Positions 11,001 to 59,664 of a stretch of DNA of 59,664 nucleotides are shown one piece after another. The translations under genes and the position numbers were made by a program. The stretch is taken from assembly GCF_002802985.1 (NCBI RefSeq), contig NZ_NVPT01000007.1, positions 1-59,664 of the forward strand. Reading direction: 5' to 3'. This DNA is from Geodermatophilus chilensis (GTDB lineage: Bacteria; Actinomycetota; Actinomycetes; Mycobacteriales; Geodermatophilaceae). The notes beneath the pieces were generated by a model. The model was not told the DNA's origin. It did not search any database and worked only from the letters and a program-made list of their open reading frames with translations. Each line of letters starts with the position of its first letter. Position 1 is the first letter of the stretch.

Positions 11001-11120
11001 CGCCGGACGCCGTCCCTGGCCCCGCTGTTGCAGGCCGCGCTCACCGGGGCGCTGGAGGCCGGCCGGCTGGTCCGCCGGGAGTCGGGACTGCTCGCCGCGG
11101 GCGGTCAGCCGATCGCGTAG
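5034..11120 (+). CDS. giant DUF4011/SF1 helicase/Vsr-like nuclease/DUF3320 protein (Hhe-like)
   Basis: 2028 residues. In order: a beta-rich N-terminal region; a transglutaminase-like domain (GTCLDT near 233, EGHAFLGYW near 257); DUF4011 (WKNSLLDLSLRNRLINY near 393); an SF1 helicase with Walker A EGPPGTGKS near 695, FDEASQ near 1312 and helicase motifs GDERDII and LNVAVTRAR; a Vsr/PD-(D/E)XK-like segment (LRDRGLSVRTDVGLSEFRVDL); a Pro/Ala-rich linker with three SAENA-type repeats; and a DUF3320-like C-terminus. DUF4011-helicase-Vsr-DUF3320 is the order of the antiphage protein Hhe, so nucleic-acid processing in defence is plausible. The transglutaminase-like cysteine and histidine could add proteolytic or transferase activity, which is unproven. 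Its last 16 bases overlap the convergent chitosanase gene. Confidence 0.85.
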   Translation: MSTTDVRPSDPSTRPAVAIQATSTPVLSYALAHNRVPVVSRLAFTNHGAAVHGATVRLGVRDAEGPIGSPVELLVDLDAGQTTVLSDVGLVMDPAAMLQIEEQRPGSIEIDLLVDGEDVGGTAVPVQVLAANQWLAAPVPLALEMLAAHVLPNHPSVTTLIGEAADLLEARTGSGSVQGYQSGPERVDEIVAALTEAMQRRAIRYTEPPAGWADVGQKVRTPGDVLDGRVGTCLDTVVTLAAALEQAGIRPLLWVAEGHAFLGYWREERSAESVATTDVAPLVNLVDLGLVRLVETTLLTSRGSAGADLHAPAYSAWLAGAGDLDRVLGVTDVHRARRDGIVPLPARTRGRDGAVQVVEYRPTVHSVAARPVERTPVASAQSGRPEIPARVQQWKNSLLDLSLRNRLINYSERAGLPLTVPTSHLAVLEDLLHEGTAVQLLPDDRIAAVHRERGLATARDLPDAQLAEVLVERRAVHAAVSEGGYLPRLRHLAYKAKTVREETGANNLYLALGSLVWELDGRPLRSPLVLVPVTLTPTSRNGVYRLALDDTGSSTPNYCLLEKLRQVHGLAVPGLTEPSEDGAGIDLDRALQAMRQALADAGLPHRVEATADLAVLQFAKYRLWKDLDEHWADLTANPLVHHLVHRPTEAFVDPVADTAGATDLDELAARCPVPADATQLRAVAEAGAGRTFVLEGPPGTGKSQTITNLLTRAVADGKRVLFVAEKRAALDVVARRLEAVGMGPFALDLHDKGAKASVVRAQVQAALEHAVAVDDEGMTADAEDLRSARRTLARYAERLHAENAAGLSYYTARTATLARRDGVPTLPVSPAFVAAASTETLTAVRHALALFPDIADLVRPSPRHAWAFVDTAQVDLLAAQQTAAAVDRAVRDLPPEPHLARVLREVRTPADLDALAHLLGGPATTLDVLDEVPTERWNVATTTVLGEVAAFSGAVHPGMERATPAALELPLADLYVAAQTAQAGRFMARRAGLRAVRDRLAPVLRPDVKVSLGDVPELVAQLWRLQTAAQGIVARASVIPGLVVPPTWNPLAEPELLVGQVEWLERAGAATDSASEFAVALRRWVVQGEGPDPAAGTAVAQLRDAVTALLRVCRSNPRRLAEWAGDDGLVLRWQMTRPERGVEHTGLMSLRRWADLVDTLEPLRVAGLHEARALLVTGELPAEDAVRAFERGLARASVAERRDAAGLDDFDADAHERAISRFTDASRAVRAHLRSALPASVLAARPFDAAGGDGEVGALRRELAKARRGLGVRALLARHGRLVTTVMPCVLVSPDSVARFFPAEAGLFDLVVFDEASQIRVADAVGALGRAKAAVVVGDSRQMPPTSFAEPTYGAAEDDAVELLGTSVEDEESILSECVQARVPRQWLSWHYRSQDESLIAFSNANYYDNRLSSFPAPTHGRPSADVDGRGISLVRVNGTFHRTGAGRLLRTNPMEAKAVVAEVLRRFDAVPLGAGPSALPSIGVVTFNAQQRSYIEGLLRDAGDERLVEALDRTDGEGLFVKNLENVQGDERDIILFSTGFSVDDRGVLPLNFGPLNRVGGERRLNVAVTRARRQVVVLSSFDPAQLRAEQTSSVGVKHLRAYLDLAALGTDALPRDARPVAVPDRHREEIAAALRDRGLSVRTDVGLSEFRVDLSVARTETPDEPGMAVLLDGPAWARRRTVGDRDGLPVEVLSGMLGWPAVERVWLPTWLRDREAVLDRLVAAVEAVPAATPPAPVVESPAFSAETAVPGPPVPAPAEPPAPEVRAIVPLRSAPPAVVEPVVAISAENAEQAPAVPAGTAVETVAISAENAVVEPEPTPAPASRPARRTPRRAAAPLLDGETAFTPWNPKGGLERKALDSLDDPRAARTVRRVLAAGLKAEGPVHRDRLVRIAAGAFGLSRVSEARRDALLRLLPDGVVDGEFAWPESLDRAGWTGFRRQTAGADRPLEHVAPEEVGNAMAALCRAAGELAEDDLLVRTAEVFGYRRRTPSLAPLLQAALTGALEAGRLVRRESGLLAAGGQPIA
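10267..10470 (+). repeat. three copies of the palindrome TTTCCGCGGAAA inside the helicase gene
   Basis: The 12-base palindrome occurs at 10267-10278, 10393-10404 and 10459-10470, spaced 126 and 66 bases, both multiples of three. Each copy encodes a SAE peptide (SAETA, SAENA, SAENA). The last two copies sit in a 26-base identical repeat (10385-10410 and 10451-10476). I did not see the palindrome elsewhere in the window. It occupies the low-complexity linker before the DUF3320-like end. Confidence 0.8.
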
Positions 11121-12040
11121 GGGTCGCCGTAGACCGACCAGCGCAGCGGCGGGACCAGGTGCAGGTTGCCGGCCTCGAGGAAGGACCGCTGCGCGGTGTC
11201 GACCCGGCTGGTGTCCTGGTGCGCCTGCTCGGTGCGCATGGCCGCCACCCGGGCGTCGAGGAAGGCGTGCAGCCACGCCGTCTCGTCGCCGCCCCGGGAC
11301 GGCGGGGCGGCCTCCTCCAGCGCGTCCGCCCGGATCCCGCCGAACGCGCCGGCCTGCTCGCCGGGGCCGTGCATCACCAGGGCGTCGTAGTAGACGAACT
11401 GGCCGAGCGCCGAGACGCCGTCCTCGAGCCCCTGCGCCACCGCCGGGTCGAAGTACTGCGCCGCGAGGACGTCGTCCTGCGCCTGGCGGAACAGCCGGTC
11501 CCCGGCAGCGGCCCGCCAGTCGTCGACGAAGGGCTCGCCCAGGCCCTCCTGCGTCACGTCGCCGATACCGAGCTCGGCCTGCCGCTGGATCGCGGGCAGG
11601 TACTGCTGCAGGTCGTTGCCGGGTGCCAGCTCGGCGTAGCGCTCGACCACCCGGGTCATGTCGCCGCAGCCGCTGCAGAAGCCGACCAGGCCGGCGGTGT
11701 AGCCGCGGTTCTCCGCCGGGACGCCCTCGACGTCCCACTCGATGTAGCCGTACTGGCCGCGCCAGTCCAGCGTGGGGTTCTCCGCGCTGGCGATCAGCTG
11801 CATGGCCACGTCGCGCTTGGCCGGAGCGGTGAGGTCACCGGTGTCCACCGGTGCCGCGGACGGCCCGGAGGCGGGCCCACCGCCCAGCCGGGGGACGACG
11901 ACCGCCGCCACCAGCACCAGCAGCGCCACCGCACCGGCCAGCAGCACCCACCGGCCGGTCCGCCGCGGGGGACGGCGGTGGCGGCCGGGGTGCCCGGGCA
12001 CCGGGGACCCGGGTCGCACCCCGGTACGCGCGCCGCCCAT
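11105..12040 (-). CDS. csn: chitosanase, glycoside hydrolase family 46
   Basis: 311 residues. GH46 enzymes hydrolyse beta-1,4 links in chitosan with inversion. The catalytic domain begins KRDVAMQLIASAENPTLDW, where E87 matches the family's acid glutamate, followed by YGYIEWDVEG with the likely nucleophile-activating aspartate near 103. GYTAGLVGFCSGCGDM, FRQAQDDVLAAQYFDPAV and GQFVYYDALVMHG are further family segments. The N-terminus is basic with one hydrophobic helix (WVLLAGAVALLVLVAAVVV), so the enzyme is secreted or membrane-anchored. The ATG at 12040 has a GGGGGAGAGG site before it. It converges on the helicase gene, with a 16-base overlap. Confidence 0.92.
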   Translation of the reverse strand: MGGARTGVRPGSPVPGHPGRHRRPPRRTGRWVLLAGAVALLVLVAAVVVPRLGGGPASGPSAAPVDTGDLTAPAKRDVAMQLIASAENPTLDWRGQYGYIEWDVEGVPAENRGYTAGLVGFCSGCGDMTRVVERYAELAPGNDLQQYLPAIQRQAELGIGDVTQEGLGEPFVDDWRAAAGDRLFRQAQDDVLAAQYFDPAVAQGLEDGVSALGQFVYYDALVMHGPGEQAGAFGGIRADALEEAAPPSRGGDETAWLHAFLDARVAAMRTEQAHQDTSRVDTAQRSFLEAGNLHLVPPLRWSVYGDPYAIG

Positions 12041-12196
12041 GACACCTCTCCCCCGTCGACTCCCTCTGGCCTCCCGGGGCGAACGCGCCGGCCCCGGCCC
12101 GGTGTTCCGCAGCCGCGCGCGACTCCCAGCCGGTGCACAGGGAGGTCCTCTACGGTCGGGTCTCCACCTGCCGCCGACAGGGAGGGACGCAGCACC

Positions 12197-13300
12197 GTGG
12201 ACGAGGCGCTGAACCCCGCCGGAGCGGTCGCCGACCTGGCCGGCACCCGCCGGATCGGCCTGCTGGAGCCCGGCGACCCGGACCGCATCGGTCCCTACGA
12301 CCTGCTGTGCCGGCTGCCGCGCGGCGGCCAGGGCGCCGACGTCTTCGTCGGGTCGGCCGGGGCGGACGGCGCGCTGGTCGTCATCAAGCGGCTGCCCGAG
12401 GGGGCGCCGGAGCTGGCCCGCAAGCGGCTGGCCCGGGAGGTGGAGAACGCCGCCCGGGTGAAGAGCTCCCGGGTCGCCAGCATCGTCGACCAGGACCTCG
12501 AGGCCGAGGCGCCCTACTACGTGCAGCAGTACGTCTCCGGGACGCCGCTGGACGAGTTCATGGCGCACCGCTCCGGCGGGCTGAACGCCGAGGAGCTGCG
12601 CCGCGTCGCCATCGGGCTGCTGCGCGCGCTGCGCGACGTGCACGCCGCGGGCGTCGTCCACCGGGACGTCAAGCCGGGGAACATCATCATCTCCGGGGAC
12701 GACGTGTGGCTGGTCGACTTCGGCATCAGCCGCTACATCGGCCCCGAGCCGCCGTCGGGCACCGCGACCACCGGGATGGCGGCGCTCGGCACGAAGCTGT
12801 TCGCCAGCCCCGAGCAGCTGGCCGGGGCGGTGCTCACCGAGGCCAGCGACGTCTACAGCTGGGGCATGGTGATCGCCTACGCGGCCGGCGCGGTGCACCC
12901 GGTCGACCCCGACGACACGATGCCGGACTCCGACTACTACCTGGCGCTGCGGGCCGGCCGGCTGGACCTGACCGGGGTGCCGGCCAACCTGCTCGACAGC
13001 GTGGAGAAGGCGCTGCGGTTCAACCCCGAGCGCCGCCCGACCGTGGCCCAGCTGGCCCGCCAGGTGGAGCAGCGCACCCGCTGGCTGGGCGAGACCTCGC
13101 AGATCCCCGACCCGCGGACGACGATGCGCGACCTGCGCTCCCTCGGCGCGGTCACCGAGGCGGCCCGCTACGAGCTGGCCCGGCTGGAACGGGCGGTCGC
13201 CGACACCTGGACCGGCTTCGCCGTGGCCGCCGTGGCGATGGTGCTGCTCGGCGTCGTCGCCGGGCTGCTGCTCGCCGTCCTGTACCACGTCGTCTTCTGA
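12197..13300 (+). CDS. membrane-anchored Ser/Thr protein kinase
   Basis: 367 residues. The kinase domain has a glycine-loop variant RLPRGGQGADV (40-49), VIKR lysine near 64, HRDVKPGN (155-162) and DFG (174-176), so it should be active. The activation region has ALGTKLFASPEQLAG. A C-terminal helix (AVAAVAMVLLGVVAGLLLAVL) would anchor it in the membrane with the kinase inside; there is no extracellular sensor domain. The GTG is preceded by GGAGGGA. It heads a compact operon with a 45-residue membrane protein, a GTPase and a GAP1-like protein, which suggests that kinase and GTPase belong to one signalling or defence pathway. Confidence 0.88.
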   Translation: MDEALNPAGAVADLAGTRRIGLLEPGDPDRIGPYDLLCRLPRGGQGADVFVGSAGADGALVVIKRLPEGAPELARKRLAREVENAARVKSSRVASIVDQDLEAEAPYYVQQYVSGTPLDEFMAHRSGGLNAEELRRVAIGLLRALRDVHAAGVVHRDVKPGNIIISGDDVWLVDFGISRYIGPEPPSGTATTGMAALGTKLFASPEQLAGAVLTEASDVYSWGMVIAYAAGAVHPVDPDDTMPDSDYYLALRAGRLDLTGVPANLLDSVEKALRFNPERRPTVAQLARQVEQRTRWLGETSQIPDPRTTMRDLRSLGAVTEAARYELARLERAVADTWTGFAVAAVAMVLLGVVAGLLLAVLYHVVF

Positions 13301-13343
13301 GATCCGTCGTCTCCTGAGCCCCCACCCCTCGAGGAGGAGCACC

Positions 13344-13481
13344 GTGTCCGGCTTGTACGAGCGCGCACTGGCCCAGCAGCGGCTCGACGCGCGCCGCCAG
13401 CGGTTCCGGGAGCGCCAGCGGGTGCTGCTGGCCGTCCTGGCCGTCACCACCGTCGTCTTCTTCGCGCTGTTCGTCCGCTGA
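13344..13481 (+). CDS. small single-pass membrane protein in the kinase/GTPase operon
   Basis: 45 residues starting at a GTG with a GAGGAGGAG site before it. The N-terminal half is amphipathic and strongly basic (QQRLDARRQRFRERQRV). The C-terminal half is one membrane helix (about VLLAVLAVTTVVFFALFV). The stop lies two bases before the GTPase start and 43 bases separate the kinase stop from this start, so translational coupling is likely. No family is recognised; a membrane tether or small regulator for the kinase or GTPase is inferred from position alone. Confidence 0.7.
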   Translation: MSGLYERALAQQRLDARRQRFRERQRVLLAVLAVTTVVFFALFVR

Positions 13482-13483
13482 CG

Positions 13484-14668
13484 ATGCGCCGCCGCGTCTG
13501 CCCCCGCTGCCTGGAGTCCCTGACCGCGCCCGTGTGGCGCGACGCCACCGGTGCGCCCACCCGGCCGCCGGTCGAGCGCCGCACCCGCTGGCAGCGGCTG
13601 CTCGACCCGCTGCGCACCGACCCGCTGCCGGTGCCCACCGCCCGGGACGCCGCCGGCGCGGCCGCGGCCAACGTGGTGCCCACCTGCCCGCGCGGGCACC
13701 GGCTGCCGCCGGAGTACCTCGACCGGCCGACGGTCGTGGTCGGCCTGGTGGGGCTGACCGGCGCGTCCAAGAGCACCTACCTGACGGTGCTCATCGACCT
13801 GCTGCACGAGGGCGCGCTGGCCTCGCTCGGCGTCTCCGTCGAGATGGACGAGGAGTCCGCCGCCCGCTTCGACGACCACCGCTACCGGCTGCTGGTGCAG
13901 CGCCAGCAGCTGCCGCTGACCCTGCCACTGCTGGGCGAGGGCAGCTCCCCGGACCCGTTCATGCTGGTGCTGCGCGGCACCGGCCGGAACGGCGCCGAGC
14001 GCGCGGTCAACCTGGTGTTCTTCGACGCCTCCGGCGAGCAGCTGTACCGCAGCGAGGACATGGGGCTCTACGGCCGGTTCCTCTACGCGGCGACGTCCCT
14101 GCTCGTCGTCCTCTCCCCCGGTGTCTTCCCGCGGCTGCGCGCGGTGGCCGACCCCGGCGAGGACTCGATGGGCCTGGCCCGGCACACCCAGATGGTGGTC
14201 AACCTGGCCAACGTGCTGCGCGCCGCCCGCAGCCTGCCGCTCGACGCGCACGTGGACGACGTGGCCACCGCGGTCGTGCTGAGCAAGGCCGACAAGCTGC
14301 GCGGCGTGCCGGACTTCCCGGTCGAGACGCTGCGCGACCCCGACCTGCGCGCGATGCCCCTGGCGCACTGGTTCGCCGACGTGCGCACGAACAGTTCCCG
14401 GCTGGTCGACTTCCTCGAGGTCAGCGGCGGGTCCAACCTGCTGACGGCGGTGCTGCACCGGCTGCCGCAGCCGACCGTGCACGCGGTCTCGGCCACCGGC
14501 GCCGACGCCCGGGACGGCGGTTACCCGCGGATCGCCCCGGTCGGCGTGCTCGACCCGCTGCTGGTGCTGCTGGCCCGCTCTGGCTTCCTCTCCGCGGAGG
14601 GCCTGAACCCCGAGGACAGCGCCCCCGAGGAGTACGGCGCCGGCCCGCGCGGCCAGTGGTCGCGGTGA
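13484..14668 (+). CDS. zinc-ribbon P-loop GTPase (double-GTPase-2-like)
   Basis: 394 residues. An N-terminal CPRC knuckle (C6, C9) and a CPRGH knuckle (C68, H72) probably bind one zinc. The GTPase part has P-loop GLTGASKST (90-98), a switch-like FFDASGEQ near 180 and SKADKL (267-272) in place of NKxD. This matches the uncharacterised prokaryotic GTPases found with GAP1-type partners in predicted conflict systems. It overlaps the next gene by the four bases GTGA and follows the small membrane protein by two bases. Nucleotide hydrolysis is expected; the target is unknown. Confidence 0.75.
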   Translation: MRRRVCPRCLESLTAPVWRDATGAPTRPPVERRTRWQRLLDPLRTDPLPVPTARDAAGAAAANVVPTCPRGHRLPPEYLDRPTVVVGLVGLTGASKSTYLTVLIDLLHEGALASLGVSVEMDEESAARFDDHRYRLLVQRQQLPLTLPLLGEGSSPDPFMLVLRGTGRNGAERAVNLVFFDASGEQLYRSEDMGLYGRFLYAATSLLVVLSPGVFPRLRAVADPGEDSMGLARHTQMVVNLANVLRAARSLPLDAHVDDVATAVVLSKADKLRGVPDFPVETLRDPDLRAMPLAHWFADVRTNSSRLVDFLEVSGGSNLLTAVLHRLPQPTVHAVSATGADARDGGYPRIAPVGVLDPLLVLLARSGFLSAEGLNPEDSAPEEYGAGPRGQWSR

Positions 14669-16329
14669 GCGGCCGGGCCTGCCCGCAGGCGCTCTACACC
14701 TCGGCCAGCCGCACGCTGGAGGGGCCGGGGTTCGGCGTCTACGCGCACTCGGCGGACTGGCCGGCCGAGGTCGGCCGCACCCGCAAGGCGCTCGGCGCGC
14801 TGGTGGGCTCCCGCCCCGAGGACGGCGAGGCCTACGGCGTGCTCTCCCGCGGCGCGGGGCGGGTGCTGCACCGCGCGGTGGCCGCCCGCGCCGACGGCTT
14901 CGGCCGCCCGGGCAACTACCTGGTGCACCTGCTGTGGGACGAGAGCGGCCGGCTCGGCGTGCGTGAGCTGCTGGCGCTGCGCCGGGCCGGGCGGTTCCTC
15001 GACGACCTCCCCGAGGACGCCGCCCCCACCGCCGACCTGCCACCGCTGCGGGTGGCGTTCGCCGACCGGGCTGCGCCGGCACTGACCCCCGACGAGGTGG
15101 ACGCACTCACCCCGCCGCTGGCCGGGCTGCTGGCCACCCTCGCCGCGGGCTCGGGCAGCTGCGCGCTGCCGGTGCGGACGGCGTCGGGCCGCGAGGTGGC
15201 CGATGTGCTCTTCGCCGTCCTGCCGCGCGCGCTGACCGCCGGCGTCTCGCTGTCCGCCGGCACCCGGGAGGACGACGGCGACACCGCGCCGGTCGCCGTG
15301 CGGCTCACCGACGCGCCCGCATCGACGGCGGCCGGGGCGCACGACACCGAGCGCGCCCGCACGCTGCTGGAGGCGGCGAGCAAGGGCGAGCTCGCGCCCG
15401 ACGAGCTGGCCGACGTCCGCCGCCTGGACGCGTGGCTGTTCGCCGACGCCTGGGCCGAGCAGGACGCCGCCGCGCTGTCGGGCGACCAGGTGGCCAGCGT
15501 GCTCGAGTCGTCGGCCGCACCGCGCTGGCTGGCGCGCCGGGGCAACGCGGCCGGCGCCCTCGACCTCGCCGCGGACAGCCCGCCCGTCGAGACGGCGCTG
15601 CGGGCGGCGGTCGACCGGTGGCCGGCGGTCGCCGAGCTGGTGCGCGGCCGGGTGCTGGCGGCGCTGCTGGACGAGGTGTTCGAGGGCGCCGCGGGCCCGG
15701 CCGAGCACGCCGTCGAGGTGGCCGGGGTGGGTCAGGCGGACCTGTGCGCGGCCGTGGCCGGCGAGGTGCGCCGCGGGCGCCGCATCGCCCGGCTCGACCG
15801 CACCGCCGGCCTGCTGGTCGAGCAGGCGCTGGCCCTCGGCGTCGACCTGCCGCTGTTCGGGCTCACCGGACAGACCTGGGAGCTGGCGCTGCTGGCCACC
15901 CGCCGCGAGGTCGTCGGCGACGCGCTGGTCGCGCAGTGGCGGTCCTCCGGTGGGTGGACGGCGGCGCACGGCGAGCTGCTCGGCCACCTGCTCGTCGCCG
16001 ATCCCGGGTGGCTGGCCCGGCTGGGCGACGCCGTCCCCGTCTCGGCGCTGCCTCCGGTGCTGCGGTGGGCGGCGCTGCGCATGGACGTGGCCGGGGTCGA
16101 GGAGCTGGCCGTCGCCGTCGCGAGCGGGGCCGGCGCCGGCCGCGGCTGGGCGCTGCGCGAGGTGGTGTTCGGCTCGGAACTGCCGGCCGGCGACGTGGAC
16201 CAGGTGCTCGGCCGGCGGCTGGAGCTGCTGCTGGTGGACGACGGCTGGCCGCCGGAGCTGGCCCGCTCCTTCGCCCGCAGCCGCGGCGCCGACGACGCCC
16301 CGTCCCGCCGGCGCCGCCGCCGCGAGTGA
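14665..16329 (+). CDS. GTPase-associated protein 1 (GAP1-N2-like)
   Basis: 554 residues. The N-terminus ALYTSASRTLEGPGFGVYAHS fits the GAP1-N2 domain that accompanies double-GTPase proteins; an alpha-helical, Ala/Leu/Arg-rich middle and end (about 230-554) resemble GAP1-M/C regions. GAP1 proteins have no known biochemical activity and are predicted partners or effectors of the neighbouring GTPase. The start is the GTG inside the GTPase stop (GTGA overlap), which enforces coupled translation and probably equal stoichiometry. A hairpin follows immediately after the stop. Confidence 0.65.
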   Translation: MSGRACPQALYTSASRTLEGPGFGVYAHSADWPAEVGRTRKALGALVGSRPEDGEAYGVLSRGAGRVLHRAVAARADGFGRPGNYLVHLLWDESGRLGVRELLALRRAGRFLDDLPEDAAPTADLPPLRVAFADRAAPALTPDEVDALTPPLAGLLATLAAGSGSCALPVRTASGREVADVLFAVLPRALTAGVSLSAGTREDDGDTAPVAVRLTDAPASTAAGAHDTERARTLLEAASKGELAPDELADVRRLDAWLFADAWAEQDAAALSGDQVASVLESSAAPRWLARRGNAAGALDLAADSPPVETALRAAVDRWPAVAELVRGRVLAALLDEVFEGAAGPAEHAVEVAGVGQADLCAAVAGEVRRGRRIARLDRTAGLLVEQALALGVDLPLFGLTGQTWELALLATRREVVGDALVAQWRSSGGWTAAHGELLGHLLVADPGWLARLGDAVPVSALPPVLRWAALRMDVAGVEELAVAVASGAGAGRGWALREVVFGSELPAGDVDQVLGRRLELLLVDDGWPPELARSFARSRGADDAPSRRRRRRE

Positions 16330-44233: not shown

Positions 44234-44563
44234 TCACAGTCCGAGATGGACCCGCAACTGTCCTTCGATCCGGGTCATCTCGCTCGGCGCCAGCAGCCCG
44301 CGGCGCCGCCGGCATCGGCCACGAGCCACCGCCTGGACGCCGGTGATGTCGACGTACGACTCGTCGTATCGGGTGAGACCGGCGTCGGCGCCCAGCGGGA
44401 TGTGCGTGAGCGATGGCCCACTGGTCCCCGTGACCGGTAGGACGACGACGTGGCCGAGCCTGCTGTTCAGGGCGTTGACGCTGAGAACGACGGCCGGGTG
44501 CGCGCCGAAACCGGGGAATGCGACGTCCCACACCTCACCGCGCAGCGGTTCCGGCAGGACCAC
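44234..44563 (-). CDS. MazF/PemK-family toxin
   Basis: 109 residues. LRGEVWDVAFPGFGAHPAVV and VNALNSRLGHVVVLPVTGTS match the MazF/PemK fold (RG-EVW start, PAVV strand, V-P-T loop). These toxins are usually ribosome-independent mRNA endonucleases. A basic stretch (GRCRRRRGLL) near residue 85 is unusual. The C-terminal helix has the family's SEMTRIEGQLRVHLGL. It lies three bases after the antitoxin stop codon and is therefore co-translated with it. Confidence 0.85.
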   Translation of the reverse strand: MVLPEPLRGEVWDVAFPGFGAHPAVVLSVNALNSRLGHVVVLPVTGTSGPSLTHIPLGADAGLTRYDESYVDITGVQAVARGRCRRRRGLLAPSEMTRIEGQLRVHLGL

Positions 44564-44566
44564 GGG

Positions 44567-44824
44567 TCAGGACGCGTCCGCGTCGTCCGGCTCTTCCGCC
44601 ACCACGCCGATGGGCAGGGGCGGTTCCTCGTCGCCGTAGAACTCGGCCACGCTGCGCGCCATGCGCTCCTCAGCGGCCCGCTGGTGCAGCAACTGCAACG
44701 CCGCCTTGACGATCTCCGTGCGACCGGAGAGCCCGAGGACCTCGGAATCCGCCTGCAGTTGGGCTGCCAGGTCCCGACTGATGCGCGCCTGCCAGACCTC
44801 GGTGCCACCCGGGATCACTGCCAT
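44567..44824 (-). CDS. antitoxin partner of the MazF-like toxin
   Basis: 85 residues from the ATG at 44824. VWQARISRDLAAQLQADSEV then LGLSGRTEIVKAALQLLHQRAA fits a ribbon-helix-helix DNA-binding unit; the acidic C-terminus (GDEEPPLPIGVVAEEPDDAD) is suited to binding a basic toxin. It sits three bases before the toxin gene. An inverted repeat directly adjacent to the start codon suggests self-repression. Confidence 0.75.
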   Translation of the reverse strand: MAVIPGGTEVWQARISRDLAAQLQADSEVLGLSGRTEIVKAALQLLHQRAAEERMARSVAEFYGDEEPPLPIGVVAEEPDDADAS

Positions 44825-49660: not shown

Positions 49661-49942
49661 GTGGAGACGATCGGGCTGCGAGAGCTGAACCAGAACCCGT
49701 CGAGAGCGGTGGCGCGGGTCCGTGCCGGCGTGACCGTCGTCGTGACCGACCGGGGTCGCCCGATCCTGCGCATGGTGCCCGAGGTCGAACGGCCGGGCGC
49801 GTTGCACGAGCTCGTGGCCTCCGGCGAGGCGACCGCACCGATCGACCAGGACATGCCGGAGCTGATCCCCGACCTGGCTCCCGAGGTCGAGAGCCTGGCG
49901 GAGCTGCTGGTCGCCGACCGGCGCCGCGAGCGCGACCGTTGA
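49661..49942 (+). CDS. Phd/YefM-family antitoxin
   Basis: 93 residues. METIGLRELNQNPSRAVARV then VVVTDRGRPILRMVPE is the Phd/YefM DNA-binding and dimerisation fold; the C-terminal 40 residues (ELIPDLAPEVESLAELLVAD) would neutralise the toxin. It begins at a leaderless GTG directly after an operator-promoter and overlaps the toxin start by four bases. The partner is a PIN-domain toxin, a common combination in actinobacteria. Confidence 0.85.
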   Translation: METIGLRELNQNPSRAVARVRAGVTVVVTDRGRPILRMVPEVERPGALHELVASGEATAPIDQDMPELIPDLAPEVESLAELLVADRRRERDR

Positions 49943-50343
49943 TCTACTTCGACGCCAGCGCACTGGTGAAGTTCGTCAAGCGGGAGGCGGAGTCGGAGGT
50001 GTTGCGGAGCTGGCGTCGCCAGCTCCCCCCGGGTATCGAACTGGCGACGAGCGAGCTGGCCGCTCTGGAGATCAGCCGCACGCTGCTGCGCGCCGGGGTG
50101 GATCACCAGCGGGTTCCCTATGTGACGGGGCAGGCGGTGCGCGGCCTCTACCTCGTGGACCTCAGCAGCGCCGTCCTGGCCCGCGCGAAGGCATACCGGG
50201 TTCGCGAGCTGGGCTCGCTGGACGCCGTGCACCTGGCCACGGCCGAACCCTTCCGGCCTGAACTGACCGACTTCGTCACCTACGACCATGAGCTGGCCGC
50301 CGCAGCGACCGAGCTGGGTCTTCCTGTGCGGTCGCCGTCCTGA
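49939..50343 (+). CDS. vapC: VapC-type PIN-domain toxin
   Basis: 134 residues. PIN ribonucleases cut tRNA or rRNA with a magnesium site of acidic residues. MIYFDASALVKFVKREAESE gives the first Asp (D5) and the Lys-Phe-Val helix; SELAALEISRTLLRAG gives the middle Glu; LGSLDAVHLATAE gives the third Asp; and VTYDHELAAAATELGL the last. It starts at a TTG inside the antitoxin stop (TTGA overlap). All expected acidic residues are present. Confidence 0.9.
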   Translation: MIYFDASALVKFVKREAESEVLRSWRRQLPPGIELATSELAALEISRTLLRAGVDHQRVPYVTGQAVRGLYLVDLSSAVLARAKAYRVRELGSLDAVHLATAEPFRPELTDFVTYDHELAAAATELGLPVRSPS

Positions 50344-54255: not shown

Positions 54256-55005
54256 TCAGCCCAGGAGCAGCCGCCACGTGGCGTGGCCGTCGTCGGCAGC
54301 CTCCCCGAGGCGGCGCCACTCGGCGGCGTCCGGGTCGTCGAGCACCTGGTTCAGCCGCAGGAGCCGCTTGCGGTCGCTACCGGCGAACCGGTTCCGCTCG
54401 GCGAGTGGATCGGCGACCAGGCTGACCAGGAACGCGGCGTCGCCGCTGTGCCGCTCGCGGTCGCGGGAGTCGCTGGCCCAAGCCGCGGCCTTGAGCACCA
54501 GGGCGCCGAGCAGGTCCGGCACCGGCACCAGCCCCGCCCGGTCGCCCTTGACCACCCGCACCGTCGTCGCCCGCCGCAGGGCCTGGGTGCCGCCCTCGAT
54601 CCGGATGGTGTCCCCGCCGACGGTACGCAACCGTCGCCGCGGCGGCGTGTGGTCAGGGGCCAGGACGTCGGCGCGGGCGTTGTCGCGGACCCGGACGAAG
54701 CGGTACACCTTGCCGGAGTTGTCCGGCTGCGCTTCCAGGTCCAGCTCCCGCATCGCACGAACGCAGCGGGCTAGCCCGGCGTCGTCGGTCAGGAGGTCGG
54801 CGAGGACGTCGACGTCCTGACTGGCCCGAGTGGCGACGCGGCCGGCCACCAGCCCGTGCAGCATCACCATCTGCCCGCCGACGACCACCCAGCCGGTCGG
54901 CGGCAGCTGCCCGGCGAGGTCGACGATCAGGTCCCACAGTGTGTCCAGCGGACCGGCCAGCGCCGGCAACTCGACGCGCGGCTCGAAGGAGCCCGCCGCG
55001 GTCAC
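54256..55005 (-). CDS. nucleotidyltransferase-fold protein, candidate toxin
   Basis: 249 residues. WVVVGGQMVMLHGLVAGR then ATRASQDVDVLADLL has the GG...DxD signature of the nucleotidyltransferase (MNT/AbiEii) fold, with both aspartates kept. GALVLKAAAWASDSRDRERH resembles the Lys/Asp-His region of AbiEii-like proteins. Such enzymes modify tRNAs in type IV or related toxin-antitoxin systems. The ATG overlaps the stop of the upstream HTH gene in ATGA, so the two are made together. The pairing suggests a toxin with its HTH partner upstream. Confidence 0.75.
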   Translation of the reverse strand: MTAAGSFEPRVELPALAGPLDTLWDLIVDLAGQLPPTGWVVVGGQMVMLHGLVAGRVATRASQDVDVLADLLTDDAGLARCVRAMRELDLEAQPDNSGKVYRFVRVRDNARADVLAPDHTPPRRRLRTVGGDTIRIEGGTQALRRATTVRVVKGDRAGLVPVPDLLGALVLKAAAWASDSRDRERHSGDAAFLVSLVADPLAERNRFAGSDRKRLLRLNQVLDDPDAAEWRRLGEAADDGHATWRLLLG

Positions 55006-55682
55006 CGGGTCAGGCCGCCCAGCGCGGCGGCGAGCATGTCGAGCCCGGCTCGCCGGGTGCGGACCTCGGCCGACTCGGCCAGGTCGACCGCGACGACTGC
55101 GGGCGGCATGTGCGCGCGGTGGCTCAGGTTCAGCGGGTCGTACCGGGGCACCCGCACGACAAGGTTCGCCTGACCGCGCTCGGAGAGGCCGAACTCGCTG
55201 CTCAGGGCGGCCAGTGTGCCGGCCGCGCAGTACACCTCGTCGGCGGACTCAGTGGCGACGATGTCGGCGCCGACCGCGGCGGCCGCCGTCAGCCCGGAGG
55301 AGACGACGCCGTCGGCGGCGAGCACGTGTTGCCGGTAGGCCGGCAGGACGCGCAGTTCGTACCGCTCGGCCCGGTCTCGGCACGCGGCGACCAGTCGGTC
55401 GGCGTCGTAGCCGCGCAGCCGCGCCACCAGGTGGGAACGGTCCGCCGGTGCTAACCAGTCGACGTCCTCCCCGGACAGCTGCCACAGCGCGGCCCACGCC
55501 GTTCGCGGGGCCAGCGCGCGACCGGCCGTGATAGGCAGACGGGCCCGGCCGTCGACGGCGTCCTCATCGAGCACGAGCGTCCGGCCGACCCTGCGAGCCG
55601 CGAGCTTCCCCGCGCGGATCAGCCGACGCACCTGCTCCGGCTCGACGCCGAGACGCTCGGCGGCTTGGGCAACAGTGAGCAC
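55002..55682 (-). CDS. excisionase-type HTH protein, candidate antitoxin
   Basis: 226 residues. VLTVAQAAERLGVEPEQVRR then LIRAGKLAARRVGRTLVLD is a MerR/excisionase-like helix-turn-helix (DNA binding). A helical middle and a C-terminal domain with VVSSGLTAAAAVGADIVATE and FGLSERGQANLVVRVPRYDP follow and would contact the partner. The GTG at 55682 has an AAGGGG site. It is coupled to the nucleotidyltransferase gene by a four-base overlap, which argues for a toxin-antitoxin-like or defence pair. Confidence 0.7.
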   Translation of the reverse strand: MLTVAQAAERLGVEPEQVRRLIRAGKLAARRVGRTLVLDEDAVDGRARLPITAGRALAPRTAWAALWQLSGEDVDWLAPADRSHLVARLRGYDADRLVAACRDRAERYELRVLPAYRQHVLAADGVVSSGLTAAAAVGADIVATESADEVYCAAGTLAALSSEFGLSERGQANLVVRVPRYDPLNLSHRAHMPPAVVAVDLAESAEVRTRRAGLDMLAAALGGLTR

Positions 55683-55830: not shown

Positions 55831-56064
55831 GTGAGCACGCAGATCGCTGTTCGGCTTCCCGAGGAGCTCGTCGAGTTCATCGACCGACTGGTGACCGACG
55901 GCCGAGCTCCGTCTCGCGCCGCGGTCGTCAGTCAGGCACTGCAGCGGGAGCGGCGTCGTGAGCTTGCGGCTCGCGACGCGGCCATCCTGGCCGCCGCCGA
56001 GGACGACGACCTGGACGCACTCGCCGAGCACGCCGCCCGGACGCCGCTCGACGACCTCGACTGA
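55831..56064 (+). CDS. ribbon-helix-helix antitoxin (MazE-like)
   Basis: 77 residues. MSTQIAVRLPEELVEFIDRL then VTDGRAPSRAAVVSQALQRE is a clear ribbon-helix-helix fold; the acidic C-terminus (AEDDDLDALAEHAARTPLDD) would occupy the toxin. The stop TGA shares its A with the ATG of the MazF gene. Tandem GCGGTACC sites upstream suggest autoregulation. Confidence 0.88.
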   Translation: MSTQIAVRLPEELVEFIDRLVTDGRAPSRAAVVSQALQRERRRELAARDAAILAAAEDDDLDALAEHAARTPLDDLD

Positions 56065-56381
56065 TGCGTCCGATCCATCTCGCTCACCTGGACAAGACTC
56101 GACCCGTTCTGGTGCTGACCCGCGAACTGGTGCGCCCGCACCTCTCGCGGGTCACCATCGCTCCGATCACCAGCACGATTCGCGGACTGTCGACAGAGGT
56201 GCCTGTCGGGCCGGACAACGGCCTCGACCATCCGAGCGCCGTCAGCTGCGACAACGTCGTCACCGTGCCGAAGTCAGCGCTCGGTCGGCAGATCGGCTCG
56301 CTGCGCCCGGAGCAGGAAGTGGCCCTCACCGCGGCTCTGCATGCCGCCTTCGACCTCGAGGACCTGCCCGCTCCTCGCTGA
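56064..56381 (+). CDS. mazF: MazF-family mRNA endonuclease toxin
   Basis: 105 residues. IHLAHLDKTRPVLVLTRELV, VTIAPITSTIRGLSTEVPVG and SCDNVVTVPKSALGRQIGSL match MazF: the R-P-V-L strand, the T-S/T-I-R loop and the CDNV strand that carries catalytic-loop residues. The C-terminal helix follows. It starts within the antitoxin stop (TGATG). It is the second intact MazF-type module in the window and is not closely similar to the one at 44.2 kb. Confidence 0.9.
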   Translation: MRPIHLAHLDKTRPVLVLTRELVRPHLSRVTIAPITSTIRGLSTEVPVGPDNGLDHPSAVSCDNVVTVPKSALGRQIGSLRPEQEVALTAALHAAFDLEDLPAPR

Positions 56382-56796: not shown

Positions 56797-57699
56797 GTGT
56801 CGCCCAGCGCCCCTGATGCTCAGGTCCTCGAGCGCCTGTCCGCTCTCCGGCAGCACCAGCAGGACGGACGGCGTTCGCCGCACAAACCACTGCTGGTGCT
56901 CCTGGCCCTGGGGCGGCTGGCCGAGACCGGATCGAGCAGCCTCCCGTGGTCCGTGGCCGAGGACAAGCTCGCCGACCTCATCCAGGAGTTTGGGCCGACG
57001 TCGAAGACGCCGCGGGCGCAGAGCGCCGCGTATCCGTTCACCCGGCTGCGCGCCGATGGCGTGTGGACGCTCGACCGCAACGTGCCGATGGACAACCTCA
57101 AGCCGCTGCGGGAGGGCGTGACCGGTCGGCTGGAGGCGTCCCTAGAGAAGGCCCTGAAGGACCGTCCGGAGCTACTCGACGCGGTCGCTCGGGGCCTTGT
57201 CGAGAGCCACTTCCCCGGGACGGTCGCACCGGACGTCCTGGCCTCGGTCGGTTTGGACCCGGACCTGCTGGAAGGGCGCTCGGTCAGCGGCGGAAGCAGG
57301 GAGCGACGGCGCAGCAGCTCCTGGCCTACCGCCGTCATCGCGGCCTGGGACCGGCAGTGCGCCTTCTGCGGGTTCGACGGCGCTGCGGGTGGAGGCGTCG
57401 TCGGCATCGAGGCGGCGCACGTCCGCTGGTTCAAGCTCGGCGGCCCGGACGACCTCGACAACGGGCTGGCTCTCTGCTCGCTGCACCACAAGTTGTTCGA
57501 TCGCGGCATCCTCGGCCTGGACGACGACTTCGCCGTCGTCGTGTCCCAGCGCTTCTCCGCCCGCACCTCGCAGGGACGAGCTGTCTACGACCTGCACGGT
57601 CAGCGGCTGCGGCCGCGTCCGGGCACTCCCCTACCGGCGGAGCGGCACGTCCTGTGGCACCGCGAGCAGGTGTTCCAGGGGACGGCCCTGGCCGGCTGA
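56797..57699 (+). CDS. sulfur-binding-domain HNH restriction endonuclease (ScoMcrA-like)
   Basis: 300 residues. The N-terminal half (RRSPHKPLLVLLALGRLAET, AYPFTRLRADGVWTL) matches the sulfur-binding domain that recognises phosphorothioate-modified DNA. The C-terminal half is HNH: CAFCGFDG, VVGIEAAHVRWFKLGGPDDL, DNGLALCSLHHKLFDRGIL, with zinc cysteines and catalytic histidines in place. Such type IV enzymes cut foreign modified DNA. No dnd or ssp modification genes are seen. The GTG at 56797 is preceded by a GGGAAC/GTTCCC repeat (56781-56796) rather than a strong ribosome binding site. It converges on the next HNH gene. Confidence 0.88.
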   Translation: MSPSAPDAQVLERLSALRQHQQDGRRSPHKPLLVLLALGRLAETGSSSLPWSVAEDKLADLIQEFGPTSKTPRAQSAAYPFTRLRADGVWTLDRNVPMDNLKPLREGVTGRLEASLEKALKDRPELLDAVARGLVESHFPGTVAPDVLASVGLDPDLLEGRSVSGGSRERRRSSSWPTAVIAAWDRQCAFCGFDGAAGGGVVGIEAAHVRWFKLGGPDDLDNGLALCSLHHKLFDRGILGLDDDFAVVVSQRFSARTSQGRAVYDLHGQRLRPRPGTPLPAERHVLWHREQVFQGTALAG

Positions 57700-57700
57700 G

Positions 57701-58219
57701 TCAGACCTCGACGGGATCAGGGACCGGCGGGCCGTACCGCAGCACCGCGGTGGGCGTCCCGGGAGGGAAGTAGCTCTCCCGGCGCCGGGCCAGCCGATTG
57801 AGCTCCCACCGCCAGGGCGGGCGGTCGGACTTCTGCTTGTTGTGCCGCCGGCACAGGGCCTGCCCGTTCAGGACGTCGGTCGCCCCGCCACGGCTGTGCG
57901 GGTGGACGTGGTCGGCCTGGAGTGCTTCGGTTCCCCGGCACCGACCGAGCAGCCAGGAGTGGTGCTCACACCGGTGACCCGCCCGCTCGAGGAATTCGGC
58001 CTTCTCGGCCCGGGAGAAGGTGCGGCGAGGGTCCCGCCCATGCCCTCCGTGGACCATCGCAGGGCCGAGTTGAACCAGCTTGCCGAGCGTGATCACCGCC
58101 AGAAGGCCGGCCAGCCACGGGGTCGAGAGGACCTCTGCCAGAGCGCTCCGGAGCACCTCACCGACGATGTCGCCGGGGCTGGACCCAGCCATTTCCGGTT
58201 CCGCGACGAGTCCGCCCAT
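57701..58219 (-). CDS. HNH endonuclease with an N-terminal membrane-like helix
   Basis: 172 residues from the ATG at 58219 (an ATG nine codons later is an alternative). A hydrophobic stretch (TPWLAGLLAVITLGKLVQLG) precedes a basic linker and the HNH core: GHRCEHHSWLLGRCRGTEAL, ADHVHPHSRGGATDVLNGQA and LCRRHNKQKSDR, with zinc-type Cys/His pairs. This is the general HNH fold used in restriction, homing and CRISPR nucleases. Its stop lies one base past the stop of the convergent sulfur-binding-domain gene. A membrane-bound nuclease would be unusual, so the helix may instead be a buried core helix. Confidence 0.75.
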   Translation of the reverse strand: MGGLVAEPEMAGSSPGDIVGEVLRSALAEVLSTPWLAGLLAVITLGKLVQLGPAMVHGGHGRDPRRTFSRAEKAEFLERAGHRCEHHSWLLGRCRGTEALQADHVHPHSRGGATDVLNGQALCRRHNKQKSDRPPWRWELNRLARRRESYFPPGTPTAVLRYGPPVPDPVEV

Positions 58220-58277
58220 GCCCGCATCAACGGGCCCAGCGAGGAAGGACTTGAGCCTCGTCGCACGTTCGAGCGAA

Positions 58278-59198
58278 TCAGCCGCCGACGTATCGCTGCC
58301 GCAAGTCGCGACTCCAGTCGGCGAGCTCGGGCACCCGCTCAGCCGCCGACGCGAGCTCGCCGTGGCCGACGAAGCGGACTGTGATCGGCATCGCGCCGCG
58401 GTCGGCGTCCAGCGCGTCGACGGCGTCGCGCGCCGAGGTGTCGTCGTCCCGCGCCAGGACGACCGTGACGGCCTCGTCGAACACCGGCGCGCCGGTCGAG
58501 CCACCACGGCGGACGCTCTCGGTCAGCAGCACGTTGCGCAGCAGCTGCCGGGTCGCGTGTCCCCGGAGCCGGTCGTAGGCGCCGTCCGCCATGCCGAACT
58601 CCTCGCAACGCGCGCGGTACTTGGCATCTGTCCGCTCGCGGTGCGGGTCCCGGCTGAAGCTGTCGACGTACTTCGTCTCCACCGCGACGAGCAGGCTGCG
58701 GCCGTCCGCCAGCCGGGCGGAGACGACGGCGTCGAAGGCGGAGCGGTCGTCGAGGTGCTCCCGCCGCTCCGGCGCCCACTCGCACTCGATGCCGTCGATG
58801 GCCCGTGTCCCGACCCTCACGGGCACCAGCTCGGCAACGTCGAGGTCGAGCAGGTCGTTCAGGACCCGGACGGCGGCGTCCCGGTGGGCTCTCAGGTGGC
58901 CGAAGACGCTGAAGCACAGCGGCATCGAGCTGAGCATGTTGGTGAACAGGCGGGTCGTCTCGAGTTGACCGCCTTCGCGCTGTACCTCGTCCGCTCGCTT
59001 CGCGGCGTAGTCGGCGGCTTCCTCGCTGAGGAAGTTGCGGCGCCAGTGCTGGGGCTGGAGGTAGTTGCCGAGGACGCGGTCGTCGCGCCGCCCGGCCGGC
59101 AACCGCAGGACGTGCTCGCGGTACTCGGACTGCCGCTGGCGCTCGCGCCGGGTGACCGCACTGTCGGAGTCGACGCGGGCGATATCCGGAGCGCTCAT
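58278..59198 (-). CDS. PD-(D/E)XK nuclease (PGN_0703-like restriction enzyme)
   Basis: 306 residues. RSAFDAVVSARLADGRSLLV then AVETKYVDSF gives the D...ExK core of a PD-(D/E)XK nuclease; the N-terminal part (VLGNYLQPQHWRRNFLSEEA, TNMLSSMPLCFSVFGHL) and the ARCEEFGM segment resemble the PGN_0703 family of putative restriction endonucleases. No methylase is adjacent, so a type IV-like or stand-alone action is inferred. The ATG overlaps the stop of the upstream OGG-fold gene (ATGA), suggesting one operon of two DNA-acting proteins. Confidence 0.78.
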   Translation of the reverse strand: MSAPDIARVDSDSAVTRRERQRQSEYREHVLRLPAGRRDDRVLGNYLQPQHWRRNFLSEEAADYAAKRADEVQREGGQLETTRLFTNMLSSMPLCFSVFGHLRAHRDAAVRVLNDLLDLDVAELVPVRVGTRAIDGIECEWAPERREHLDDRSAFDAVVSARLADGRSLLVAVETKYVDSFSRDPHRERTDAKYRARCEEFGMADGAYDRLRGHATRQLLRNVLLTESVRRGGSTGAPVFDEAVTVVLARDDDTSARDAVDALDADRGAMPITVRFVGHGELASAAERVPELADWSRDLRQRYVGG

Positions 59199-59545
59199 GC
59201 GGCCCTCCCCCTCCGGAAGAAGGCGTACTCGATGCGGTCTGGGGTGACGAGTTCTCCTGCGGTCGAGTCGGACAGCTGCGCCGACCAGCCGGCCAGCAGG
59301 TCGCAGTAGGCGACGTAGTCACCGGAGGACCAGGCGTATCGGCCGGTCAGGGACGCCCACCCGCAGTGCCGACGCAGACTCCTGGCGACCATCGAGTCGA
59401 GGATCAGACAGCGATGAGAGGGGCTGCCGCCGCCGGCGAAGTACAGGAACTTGGTGAAGAACGGCGGACCGAGGAAGAGCCGGCATTGGCCTGCGGACGC
59501 AACCCCCGGTAGGCCCCTTCGGGATCGGTTCGTCCTAAAGATCAT
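59195..59545 (-). pseudogene. OGG-fold DNA-glycosylase-like protein, N-terminus missing
   Basis: The readable 116 residues contain LFLGPPFFTKFLYFAGGG and RCLILDSMVARSLRRHCG, the helix-hairpin-helix and aspartate region of 8-oxoguanine-glycosylase-fold proteins. Other members of this prokaryotic group are about twice as long; the whole first domain is absent, and the present N-terminus (MIFRTNRSRRGLPG) is Arg/Gly-rich filler. The truncation lies next to an IS630-type transposase start, so an insertion probably cut the gene. The remaining ATGA overlap with the nuclease gene shows the original operon. Confidence 0.6.
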
Positions 59546-59625
59546 TAACGGCAGGAGTTACGGGCTCGGTTGGCCGCCGGCCGGACCCTGCTGACAGTCG
59601 GCGCGGCCTGCGCTATGCCCACACC

Positions 59626-59664
59626 ATGAGGTATCCCCAGGGTGGCGGGCTGACCGCGGACGAG
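59626..59664 (+). mobile_element. start of an IS630-family-like transposase gene (runs off the window)
   Basis: An ATG at 59626 opens MRYPQGGGLTADE up to the window edge. This beginning is typical of the winged-helix N-terminus of IS630-type transposases as I remember them. The left terminal repeat would lie within about 59546-59625, where candidate TA target dinucleotides occur (59544-59556). Only 13 residues are visible, so the family call is tentative. Confidence 0.45.

What the first reader, a model, noticed from the sequence alone, without database searches (positions are those of the whole stretch)
56797..59664. Nuclease island: sulfur-binding HNH, HNH, PD-(D/E)XK and OGG-fold proteins
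Three different nuclease folds and a base-recognising glycosylase fold occur side by side at the end of an accessory region, ending in a transposase. The PD-(D/E)XK and OGG-fold genes are translationally coupled. A nuclease paired with a base-scanning OGG-fold partner may be an undescribed modified-DNA restriction system.
Basis: partly seen in the sequence, partly recalled or inferred. Interest (0 to 1): 0.6.

Follow-up and report, generated by a model that had tools for sequence, protein, structure and literature searches.

The report
IS-broken glycosylase–nuclease defence operon
At the end of this soil-bacterium contig lies a broken copy of a small operon that pairs a base-excising DNA-repair-like enzyme with a restriction-like nuclease; intact copies in two relatives suggest a way of attacking foreign, chemically modified DNA, but no test of it was found.

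Summary
The genes are real, but the OGG gene is broken. Window 56797-59664 holds a phosphorothioate-DNA-type SBD-HNH nuclease, a small HNH, a PD-(D/E)XK nuclease (PF20796, 252 bits) and, overlapping it by ATGA, only the C-terminal 40% of an OGG-like glycosylase (PF21790). An IS with terminal repeats and a TA duplication cuts the gene. The other half lies at the start of contig C27, beside a NERD-UvrD helicase.

Intact OGG→nuclease pairs, again overlapping, occur in 2 of 111 other family genomes, in an operon DEDDh-BRCT exonuclease / NERD-UvrD helicase / OGG / PD-(D/E)XK. The exonuclease scores to PADLOC's PDC-S48. Exonuclease and OGG also adjoin on an Arthrobacter plasmid. So the pair is genuine, but each gene mostly occurs without the other.

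Best reading: optional cargo of a variable defence operon, with OGG excising modified bases and nucleases and helicase finishing the DNA. This is inferred. The putative catalytic Lys/Asp pair is conserved (31/32, 32/32), but OGG structure prediction failed (pLDDT 44.5) and no activity is known. SBD-HNH is a known type IV kind, on the opposite strand.

The parts
56797..57699 (+). SBD-HNH nuclease, phosphorothioate-DNA type (type IV-like), neighbour on the opposite strand
   Evidence: NF045808 252.7 bits against cut-off 180; PF13391 HNH_2; phmmer to 5zmo and 7cc9 chains
57701..58219 (-). small HNH protein downstream of the PD-(D/E)XK gene, same strand
   Evidence: PF01844; homologue directly downstream of the same nuclease in G430
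58278..59198 (-). PD-(D/E)XK nuclease, PDDEXK_13 / REase-ARP family, intact; D156, E174, K176
   Evidence: PF20796 252.3 bits; D, E, K invariant in 9 aligned relatives; AlphaFold2 pLDDT 90.4; structural matches with Z at most 7.2, many of them nucleases
59195..59545 (-). C-terminal part of OGG-like glycosylase gene (broken), with the conserved Lys and Asp; the gene's own sequence ends near 59536
   Evidence: PF21790 positions 121-201 of 201, 94.1 bits; N-terminal part at G000:C27:97-387
59536..59537 (.). TA dinucleotide at the IS junction (target duplication)
   Evidence: sequence
59538..59664 (+). end of an IS630-like element (type name recalled): terminal repeat and first codons of the transposase (start 59626); runs off the contig
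   Evidence: inverted repeat shared with the start of C27; first 117 bp repeated in the genome; HTH_33 and DDE_3 in a related copy

Best explanation
This is an IS-inactivated copy of a base-excision-type defence operon. Shown: in G411 and G419 an OGG-like glycosylase gene overlaps a PD-(D/E)XK nuclease gene and follows a NERD-UvrD helicase gene, which overlaps a DEDDh-BRCT exonuclease gene before it; in the window's genome the helicase gene precedes the OGG N-half on C27. Inferred mechanism: OGG scans DNA, flips out and excises a modified or damaged base in invading DNA through its Lys/Asp pair, leaving an abasic site or nick. The PD-(D/E)XK nuclease (and, where present, the DUF6884-GIY-YIG protein) cuts there, and the helicase and 3'-5' exonuclease unwind and degrade. 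The OGG-PD cassette is one of several alternative neighbours of the helicase. In the window's genome the OGG gene is split, so only the other parts can still be made.
For: OGG-nuclease pair with stop/start overlap in own, G411 and G419. G411's OGG is 63% and the own halves 57 and 59% identical to G419's, while the other 14 rows of that alignment are at most 39% and plasmid hits at most 46% to G411's, so the association is not one recent event. Both genes look under purifying selection between G411 and G419, dN/dS about 0.28 and 0.25 (dS near 1, so rough). Helicase in the same cluster for 7 of the 8 members of the close nuclease group, own by inference across the IS. Exonuclease 452.7 bits to PADLOC PDC-S48, helicase 110.8 to RTasNERD-Hel, a DUF6884 protein of G409 75.5 to PDC-M57A. 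Other lineage: on Arthrobacter plasmid pZXY22 the same exonuclease architecture lies directly upstream of OGG. With G419's exonuclease as query 32 of 72,556 plasmid records match, mostly its nuclease domain alone; pZXY22 ranks first and is the only one of the 30 listed whose match reaches the C-terminal part. Of those 30, two also hold OGG (pZXY22, pMYC1), within about 1.2 kb of it. Lys 31/32 and Asp 32/32 in OGGs under 95% identical. A DUF6884 member is reported as an abasic-site interactor (PMC11701544, passage). Precedents: Brig1 and Brig3, and R.PabI, whose restriction is promoted by AP endonucleases (PMC11078745, PMC13160076, PMC10273834; passages and one section).
Against: Pairing is rare: 3 of 112 family genomes; in a 396-genome phylum sample only the own genome has both genes. 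Only 2 of 94 OGG-centred stretches hold the nuclease. The nuclease lacks OGG in 5 of 8 close group members. Exonuclease: none in the own genome at 1e-20; of 28 OGG-positive genomes only G411 and G419 have it beside OGG, and G404 and G415 have it elsewhere; on plasmids one full architecture among the 8 OGG regions opened. It precedes only 12 of 30 readable helicase loci. OGG and PD match no PADLOC family. The OGG fold was not reproduced and shows no profile similarity to HhH-GPD proteins. No substrate, activity or phage phenotype is known. C342-C27 continuity is inferred through a repeated IS.
Confidence: 0.4

Rival explanations
1. Independent cargo: OGG and the PD-(D/E)XK nuclease are separate genes that landed next to one another in a turnover hotspot beside the NERD-UvrD helicase; their products do not work together.
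For: The surroundings of the helicase vary between genomes: exonuclease, DUF6884-GIY-YIG, PD, OGG-PD or other genes. Both genes usually occur without the other. Nuclease tree: a supported group holds two OGG-bearing and two OGG-less members and leaves out the own one.
Against: Three genomes keep the same order and overlap, with OGGs of one subfamily. Exonuclease-OGG proximity recurs on two plasmids of other families.
Confidence: 0.3
2. DNA repair, not defence: an accessory base-excision pathway for oxidised DNA in a stress-tolerant family (tolerance recalled, not from a call), with glycosylase, AP-site protein, helicase and exonuclease.
For: OGG-like Lys/Asp pair; DUF6884 related to YaaA, tied to oxidative stress, and to abasic sites (PMC11701544, passage); a DEDDh exonuclease and, in some loci, an EEP nuclease nearby.
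Against: Patchy, on plasmids (34 records) and IS-broken in this strain; the exonuclease scores to a PADLOC candidate and neighbours include type IV-like enzymes; ordinary HhH-GPD genes are present in the own genome.
Confidence: 0.18
3. OGG is a non-cutting reader: it flips out and recognises a modified base and only recruits or licenses the PD-(D/E)XK nuclease, as the SRA or SBD domain does in type IV enzymes.
For: Reader plus nuclease is the usual type IV plan (recalled); the overlap suggests coupled expression.
Against: The putative catalytic Lys/Asp pair is kept in 31 and 32 of 32 sequences, unlikely if catalysis were lost.
Confidence: 0.12

Closest known systems
Brig1 / Brig3 phage-defence DNA glycosylases (PMC11078745: passages; PMC13160076: abstract, passages and the discussion section)
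   Same: A DNA glycosylase acting by base excision on modified phage DNA, found in soil metagenomic DNA near other defence genes; Brig3 overlaps a helper gene in its operon
   Different: Brigs belong to the uracil-DNA glycosylase superfamily; OGG here matches only PF21790 well. The Brig3 partner is a glucosyl hydrolase, here a PD-(D/E)XK nuclease. No activity is shown here
R.PabI / R.CcoLI restriction glycosylases (PMC10273834: abstract and passages)
   Same: Restriction by base excision; with R.PabI promoted by AP endonucleases
   Different: HALFPIPE fold, sequence-specific, blocked by methylation; here an OGG-like family with nuclease and helicase genes, and no methyltransferase seen among the annotated operon genes
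OGG1 / HhH-GPD 8-oxoguanine glycosylases
   Same: Lys...Asp pair at nearly the same spacing (18 here; K249-D268 in human OGG1, PMC13160076)
   Different: No sequence or profile match to HhH-GPD proteins found; accessory distribution
PADLOC PDC-S48 and RTasNERD-Hel / GajB-type UvrD helicases
   Same: The operon's exonuclease and helicase score to these models (PDC as 'phage defence candidate' is recalled)
   Different: OGG and PDDEXK_13 score to no PADLOC model
ScoMcrA / SprMcrA-type phosphorothioate-dependent HNH enzymes (names recalled)
   Same: The window's 56797-57699 gene is of this kind
   Different: Nothing new; it is a neighbour on the other strand

Membership tests
OGG-like family PF21790 | profile score over the curated cut-off | tested here: met
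   Own C-half 94.1 bits, intact G419 201.5 bits, cut-off 27
OGG-like family PF21790 | complete open gene in the window's genome | tested here: not met
   Positions 121-201 in the window, 2-99 on C27, IS between, second frame break
HhH-GPD / OGG1 glycosylases | catalytic Lys and Asp | tested here: met
   Lys 31/32 and Asp 32/32 in the 32 sequences kept, all under 95% identical; K150 and D168 invariant in 14. That these are the catalytic residues is inferred
HhH-GPD / OGG1 glycosylases | helix-hairpin-helix fold | tested here: inconclusive
   AlphaFold2 without alignment pLDDT 44.5; hhalign to shallow alignments of 11 HhH-GPD proteins gave 0.16 and 0.47%, controls 0.11-0.25%; no credible PDB sequence match
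HhH-GPD / OGG1 glycosylases | excision of 8-oxoguanine or another base | not testable with these tools
   needs protein
PD-(D/E)XK nucleases, PDDEXK_13 | profile score and D...ExK motif | tested here: met
   252.3 bits, cut-off 27; D156, E174, K176
PD-(D/E)XK nucleases, PDDEXK_13 | fold | tested here: inconclusive
   Model pLDDT 90.4; many leading rows are nucleases that I recall as PD-(D/E)XK, but Z is at most 7.2 and the best Foldseek E-value is 0.027
Brig glycosylases (UDG superfamily) | UDG-superfamily sequence | tested here: not met
   0 of 14 OGG proteins match the Pfam UDG model; the same library finds UDG in a neighbour on pMYC1. Sequence level only
PabI restriction glycosylases | HALFPIPE family sequence | tested here: inconclusive
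   14 of 14 match PF21790 and no PabI-type model is listed, but whether the library holds one was not checked
Phosphorothioate-dependent type IV enzymes (SBD-HNH gene) | SBD plus HNH, NCBIfam cut-off | tested here: met
   252.7 bits, cut-off 180
Phosphorothioate-dependent type IV enzymes (SBD-HNH gene) | absence of dnd modification genes in the host | not tested
   searches spent elsewhere
   G411 and G419
   needs phage or DNA assays

The most novel reading that the evidence does not exclude
A new class of immunity in which an OGG-type glycosylase, not of the UDG or HALFPIPE kind, works in one operon with a dedicated PD-(D/E)XK nuclease, a NERD-UvrD helicase and a DEDDh-BRCT exonuclease: a self-contained base-excision-and-destroy machine against phages or plasmids with modified bases, in which exonuclease plus glycosylase may be the oldest partnership (shared with a conjugative Arthrobacter plasmid).
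Probability: 0.27. Interest if true: 0.78.

Novelty: new variant of a known kind. Interest (0 to 1): 0.5.

Why it matters
Base excision as immunity is described for two glycosylase groups, the UDG-type Brigs and the HALFPIPE PabI family. A third family (PF21790, in 72 of 397 genomes sampled from the order) with an operon-borne nuclease would suggest that repair glycosylases have repeatedly been turned into weapons and could give new base-specific DNA-cutting tools. It also gives a function to test for a sizeable family named only by resemblance.

Tried and rejected
OGG structure: one AlphaFold2 job on the intact protein alone, pLDDT 44.5, useless. Sequence and profile searches of the PDB with OGG and with the nuclease found nothing credible. 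hhalign of 32 OGG sequences against 11 HhH-GPD proteins in two groups gave probabilities of 0.16 and 0.47%, four unrelated controls 0.11-0.25%. Only 11 of the 30 HhH loci entered, because my gene caller looked at one strand; the alignments were shallow, so homology is not excluded.

Co-presence alone is no argument: 5 of 112 family genomes have both genes, about 2 expected by chance from 13 and 18; only adjacency is informative. Chance adjacency or one recent transfer: rejected because of 57-63% identity to G419's OGG with the same junction. The nuclease tree does not group the OGG-bearing members, so gain or loss of OGG must be repeated; this counts against a fixed pair.

Exonuclease-OGG link: it was found by opening 8 OGG regions on plasmids, one of which shows it in full. 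The first check used that plasmid's own protein, so its single full-length hit is the query itself; one search repeats it with G419's exonuclease. Neither output lists BRCT content, so 'only one full architecture' rests on match extents.

DUF6884-GIY-YIG as a general partner of the nuclease: rejected beyond the close group. It lies in the cluster for 4 of 8 close members; among the other nuclease loci in the scan only two hold a DUF6884 match, about 7 kb (L122) and 5 kb (L140) away. The own-genome gene in that position (C27:2157-2936) matches only my own profile and no Pfam model at E 0.01.

The meaning of 'ARP' in the Pfam name REase-ARP was not found. No paper with the family names, PGN_0703 or an OGG-nuclease pair turned up in the held library (listings only, except the papers named as read in part); it holds open-licence PMC papers only. 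No close solved structure for the nuclease.
Full report
WHAT IS IN THE WINDOW. On the + strand, 56797-57699 is an SBD-HNH protein over the NCBIfam cut-off for phosphorothioated-DNA-binding restriction endonucleases (252.7 bits against 180; PDB chains 5zmo and 7cc9 match). On the - strand lie an HNH protein (57701-58219), a PD-(D/E)XK nuclease (58278-59198; PF20796 252.3 bits, PF22558 81.2 bits) and an OGG-like fragment (59195-59545; PF21790 94.1 bits). The OGG stop and the nuclease start share ATGA. HNH occurs twice, so there are two nuclease folds, not three.

THE OGG GENE IS BROKEN. The fragment covers profile positions 121-201 of 201. The only other OGG match in the genome covers positions 2-99 and lies at the very start of another contig, C27. 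Both halves stop at the same terminal repeat, AAAGATCATTAA, beside a TA. The first 117 bp of that element were found at five further places with 99-100% identity and at five more with 81-83% (40 of 112 candidates scored), which probably explains the contig break; a related copy encodes HTH_33 and DDE_3 domains, as in IS630-type transposases (type name recalled). After the IS a few codons continue in the frame of the N-half, then the homology moves to another frame. Joining C342 to C27 is therefore an inference, a strong one. Immediately upstream of the N-half on C27 is a NERD-UvrD helicase gene, 81% identical to G419's.

INTACT COPIES ELSEWHERE. In the family sample of 112 genomes, own included, OGG occurs in 13, the nuclease in 18, both in 5, and side by side in 3: own, G411 and G419, three genera. 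In G411 and G419 the order is DEDDh-BRCT exonuclease, NERD-UvrD helicase, OGG (233 aa), nuclease (312 aa), with overlaps at the exonuclease-helicase and OGG-nuclease junctions. In G411 a DUF7669-DUF6884-GIY-YIG gene follows, in two pieces. In a phylum sample of 396 genomes OGG occurs in 16 and the nuclease in 23; only the own genome has both.

HOW FIXED IS THE PAIR? Not very. The close nuclease group has eight members, own included (61-77% identical in the comparisons). Three have OGG; the other five genomes have no OGG at all. Seven of eight have the helicase in the same cluster, own by inference. A pattern scan of 84,980 named genomes with this group returned six loci, all Blastococcus or Geodermatophilus (it rests on two short peptide patterns and missed G419). 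Of 94 OGG-centred stretches from other genomes and plasmids (OGG re-found in 93), only those of G411 and G419 hold the nuclease. G411's OGG is 63% and the own halves 57 and 59% identical to G419's, against at most 39% for the other 14 rows and at most 46% for plasmid hits of G411's, so the paired OGGs form one subfamily. OGG-bearing nucleases are not a clade. dN/dS is about 0.28 for OGG and 0.25 for the nuclease between G411 and G419.

THE WIDER OPERON. The helicase occurs in 49 of 112 family genomes at E up to 1e-60. In the 30 best helicase loci, read with 1.5-kb flanks, the exonuclease lies directly upstream in 12 (three of these only as a piece), a DUF6884 gene downstream in 7, the nuclease in 6 (one on the other strand, one upstream) and OGG in 3. 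So the helicase's neighbours vary. PADLOC's models score the exonuclease as PDC-S48 (452.7 bits), the helicase as RTasNERD-Hel (110.8 bits) and the DUF6884 protein as PDC-M57A (75.5 bits), and nothing for OGG or the nuclease. The own genome has no such exonuclease at 1e-20. C27 also carries a PLD-helicase (PADLOC mREase_IV, 998 bits), an HNH_2 protein and a Schlafen-type helicase.

A SECOND LINK. OGG is on 34 plasmid records, all of genera I know as actinobacteria. I opened 8 of these regions. On the conjugative Arthrobacter plasmid pZXY22 the gene directly upstream of OGG has the same DEDDh-TerB-BRCT architecture as the Geodermatophilaceae exonuclease (the TerB scores are below the Pfam cut-off). 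On pMYC1 an exonuclease-domain gene and an HNH gene precede OGG and a UDG-family gene follows. With G419's exonuclease as query 32 of 72,556 plasmid records match; pZXY22 is first and the only one of the 30 listed whose match reaches the C-terminal part. Two of those 30, pZXY22 and pMYC1, are also OGG records. An earlier search used the plasmid's own protein. Against this, of 28 OGG-positive genomes only G411 and G419 have the exonuclease beside OGG. This is few cases, but other families and other replicons.

WHAT OGG MAY DO. In 32 OGG sequences, all under 95% identical, Lys is present in 31 and Asp in 32, 18 residues apart; the human OGG1 pair is K249-D268 (PMC13160076, discussion section). 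Against this, no fold evidence could be obtained: AlphaFold2 without an alignment gave pLDDT 44.5 and hhalign to HhH-GPD proteins of related genomes gave nothing useful. The name OGG therefore rests on Pfam and on the Lys/Asp pair. The nuclease model is good (pLDDT 90.4); its structural neighbours include FokI, Can2, EndoMS, McrBC and MspJI, with Z at most 7.2, a level that the tool calls common, so no specific relative can be named.

MECHANISM. Most likely (0.4): excision of a modified base by OGG, then cutting and degradation by nuclease, helicase and exonuclease. Shown are gene order, overlaps, rough selection and conserved residues; inferred are substrate, excision, order of steps and defence. 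R.PabI shows that AP endonucleases can promote restriction by excision, which was not seen with R.CcoLI (PMC10273834, passages); Brig1 and Brig3 show that excision of phage bases protects cells; a DUF6884 protein has been reported among abasic-site interactors (PMC11701544, passage). Rivals: independent cargo (0.3), repair (0.18), non-cutting reader (0.12).

VERDICT. The finding is worth keeping as a lead to an apparently undescribed operon family, but this copy is dead, the SBD-HNH neighbour is an ordinary known kind, and the glycosylase claim lacks structural and any functional proof. No description of the pair was found in the held papers.

Noticed in passing
L150 4709-5644, L151 7884-8819, L152 7929-8861: Relatives of the PD-(D/E)XK nuclease sit as single genes on the strand opposite to their neighbours in viral contigs, next to a long gene that looks by eye like a tape measure (no Pfam match for the one scanned): possible phage-borne exclusion genes.
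   Followed up: partly
L157 (plasmid pMYC1) 3280-7094: Exonuclease-domain, HNH, OGG and a UDG-superfamily gene lie within 4 kb on one plasmid: two glycosylase families close together.
   Followed up: partly
G000:C27 (L082) 8645-16234: PLD-SF2-DUF3427 enzyme (PADLOC mREase_IV, 998 bits), a 573-aa HNH_2 protein, a MazG-like gene (by eye) and a Schlafen-type helicase: a defence-like island continuing the window if C27 joins its end.
   Followed up: partly
G404:C1:454150-454515, G415:C159:68364-68887: OGG copies elsewhere in the family also look broken (an internal stop; two frames).
   Followed up: no
window 55831-56381: RHH protein and PemK/MazF toxin gene side by side: a toxin-antitoxin pair.
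   Followed up: no
window 54256-55682: HTH_17 protein overlapping a 249-aa protein with a nucleotidyltransferase-like motif by eye (no Pfam match over cut-off, no PDB match): possibly an AbiE-like pair.
   Followed up: partly
window 49661-50343 and 44234-44824: Two further toxin-antitoxin-like pairs by eye (Phd-PIN and MazF-like); not tested.
   Followed up: no
L099 3856-5247 and other family loci: ADP-ribosylglycohydrolase fused to a DSP-type phosphatase recurs in these stretches; an ADP-ribosyl glycohydrolase also lies beside a Brig1-type gene (PMC11078745).
   Followed up: no
L175 3819-4628, L187 2-817: SBD-HNH-like genes (by eye) lie within about 700 bp of the NERD-UvrD helicase in two other genomes of the own genus, as if the same hotspot collects them.
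   Followed up: no
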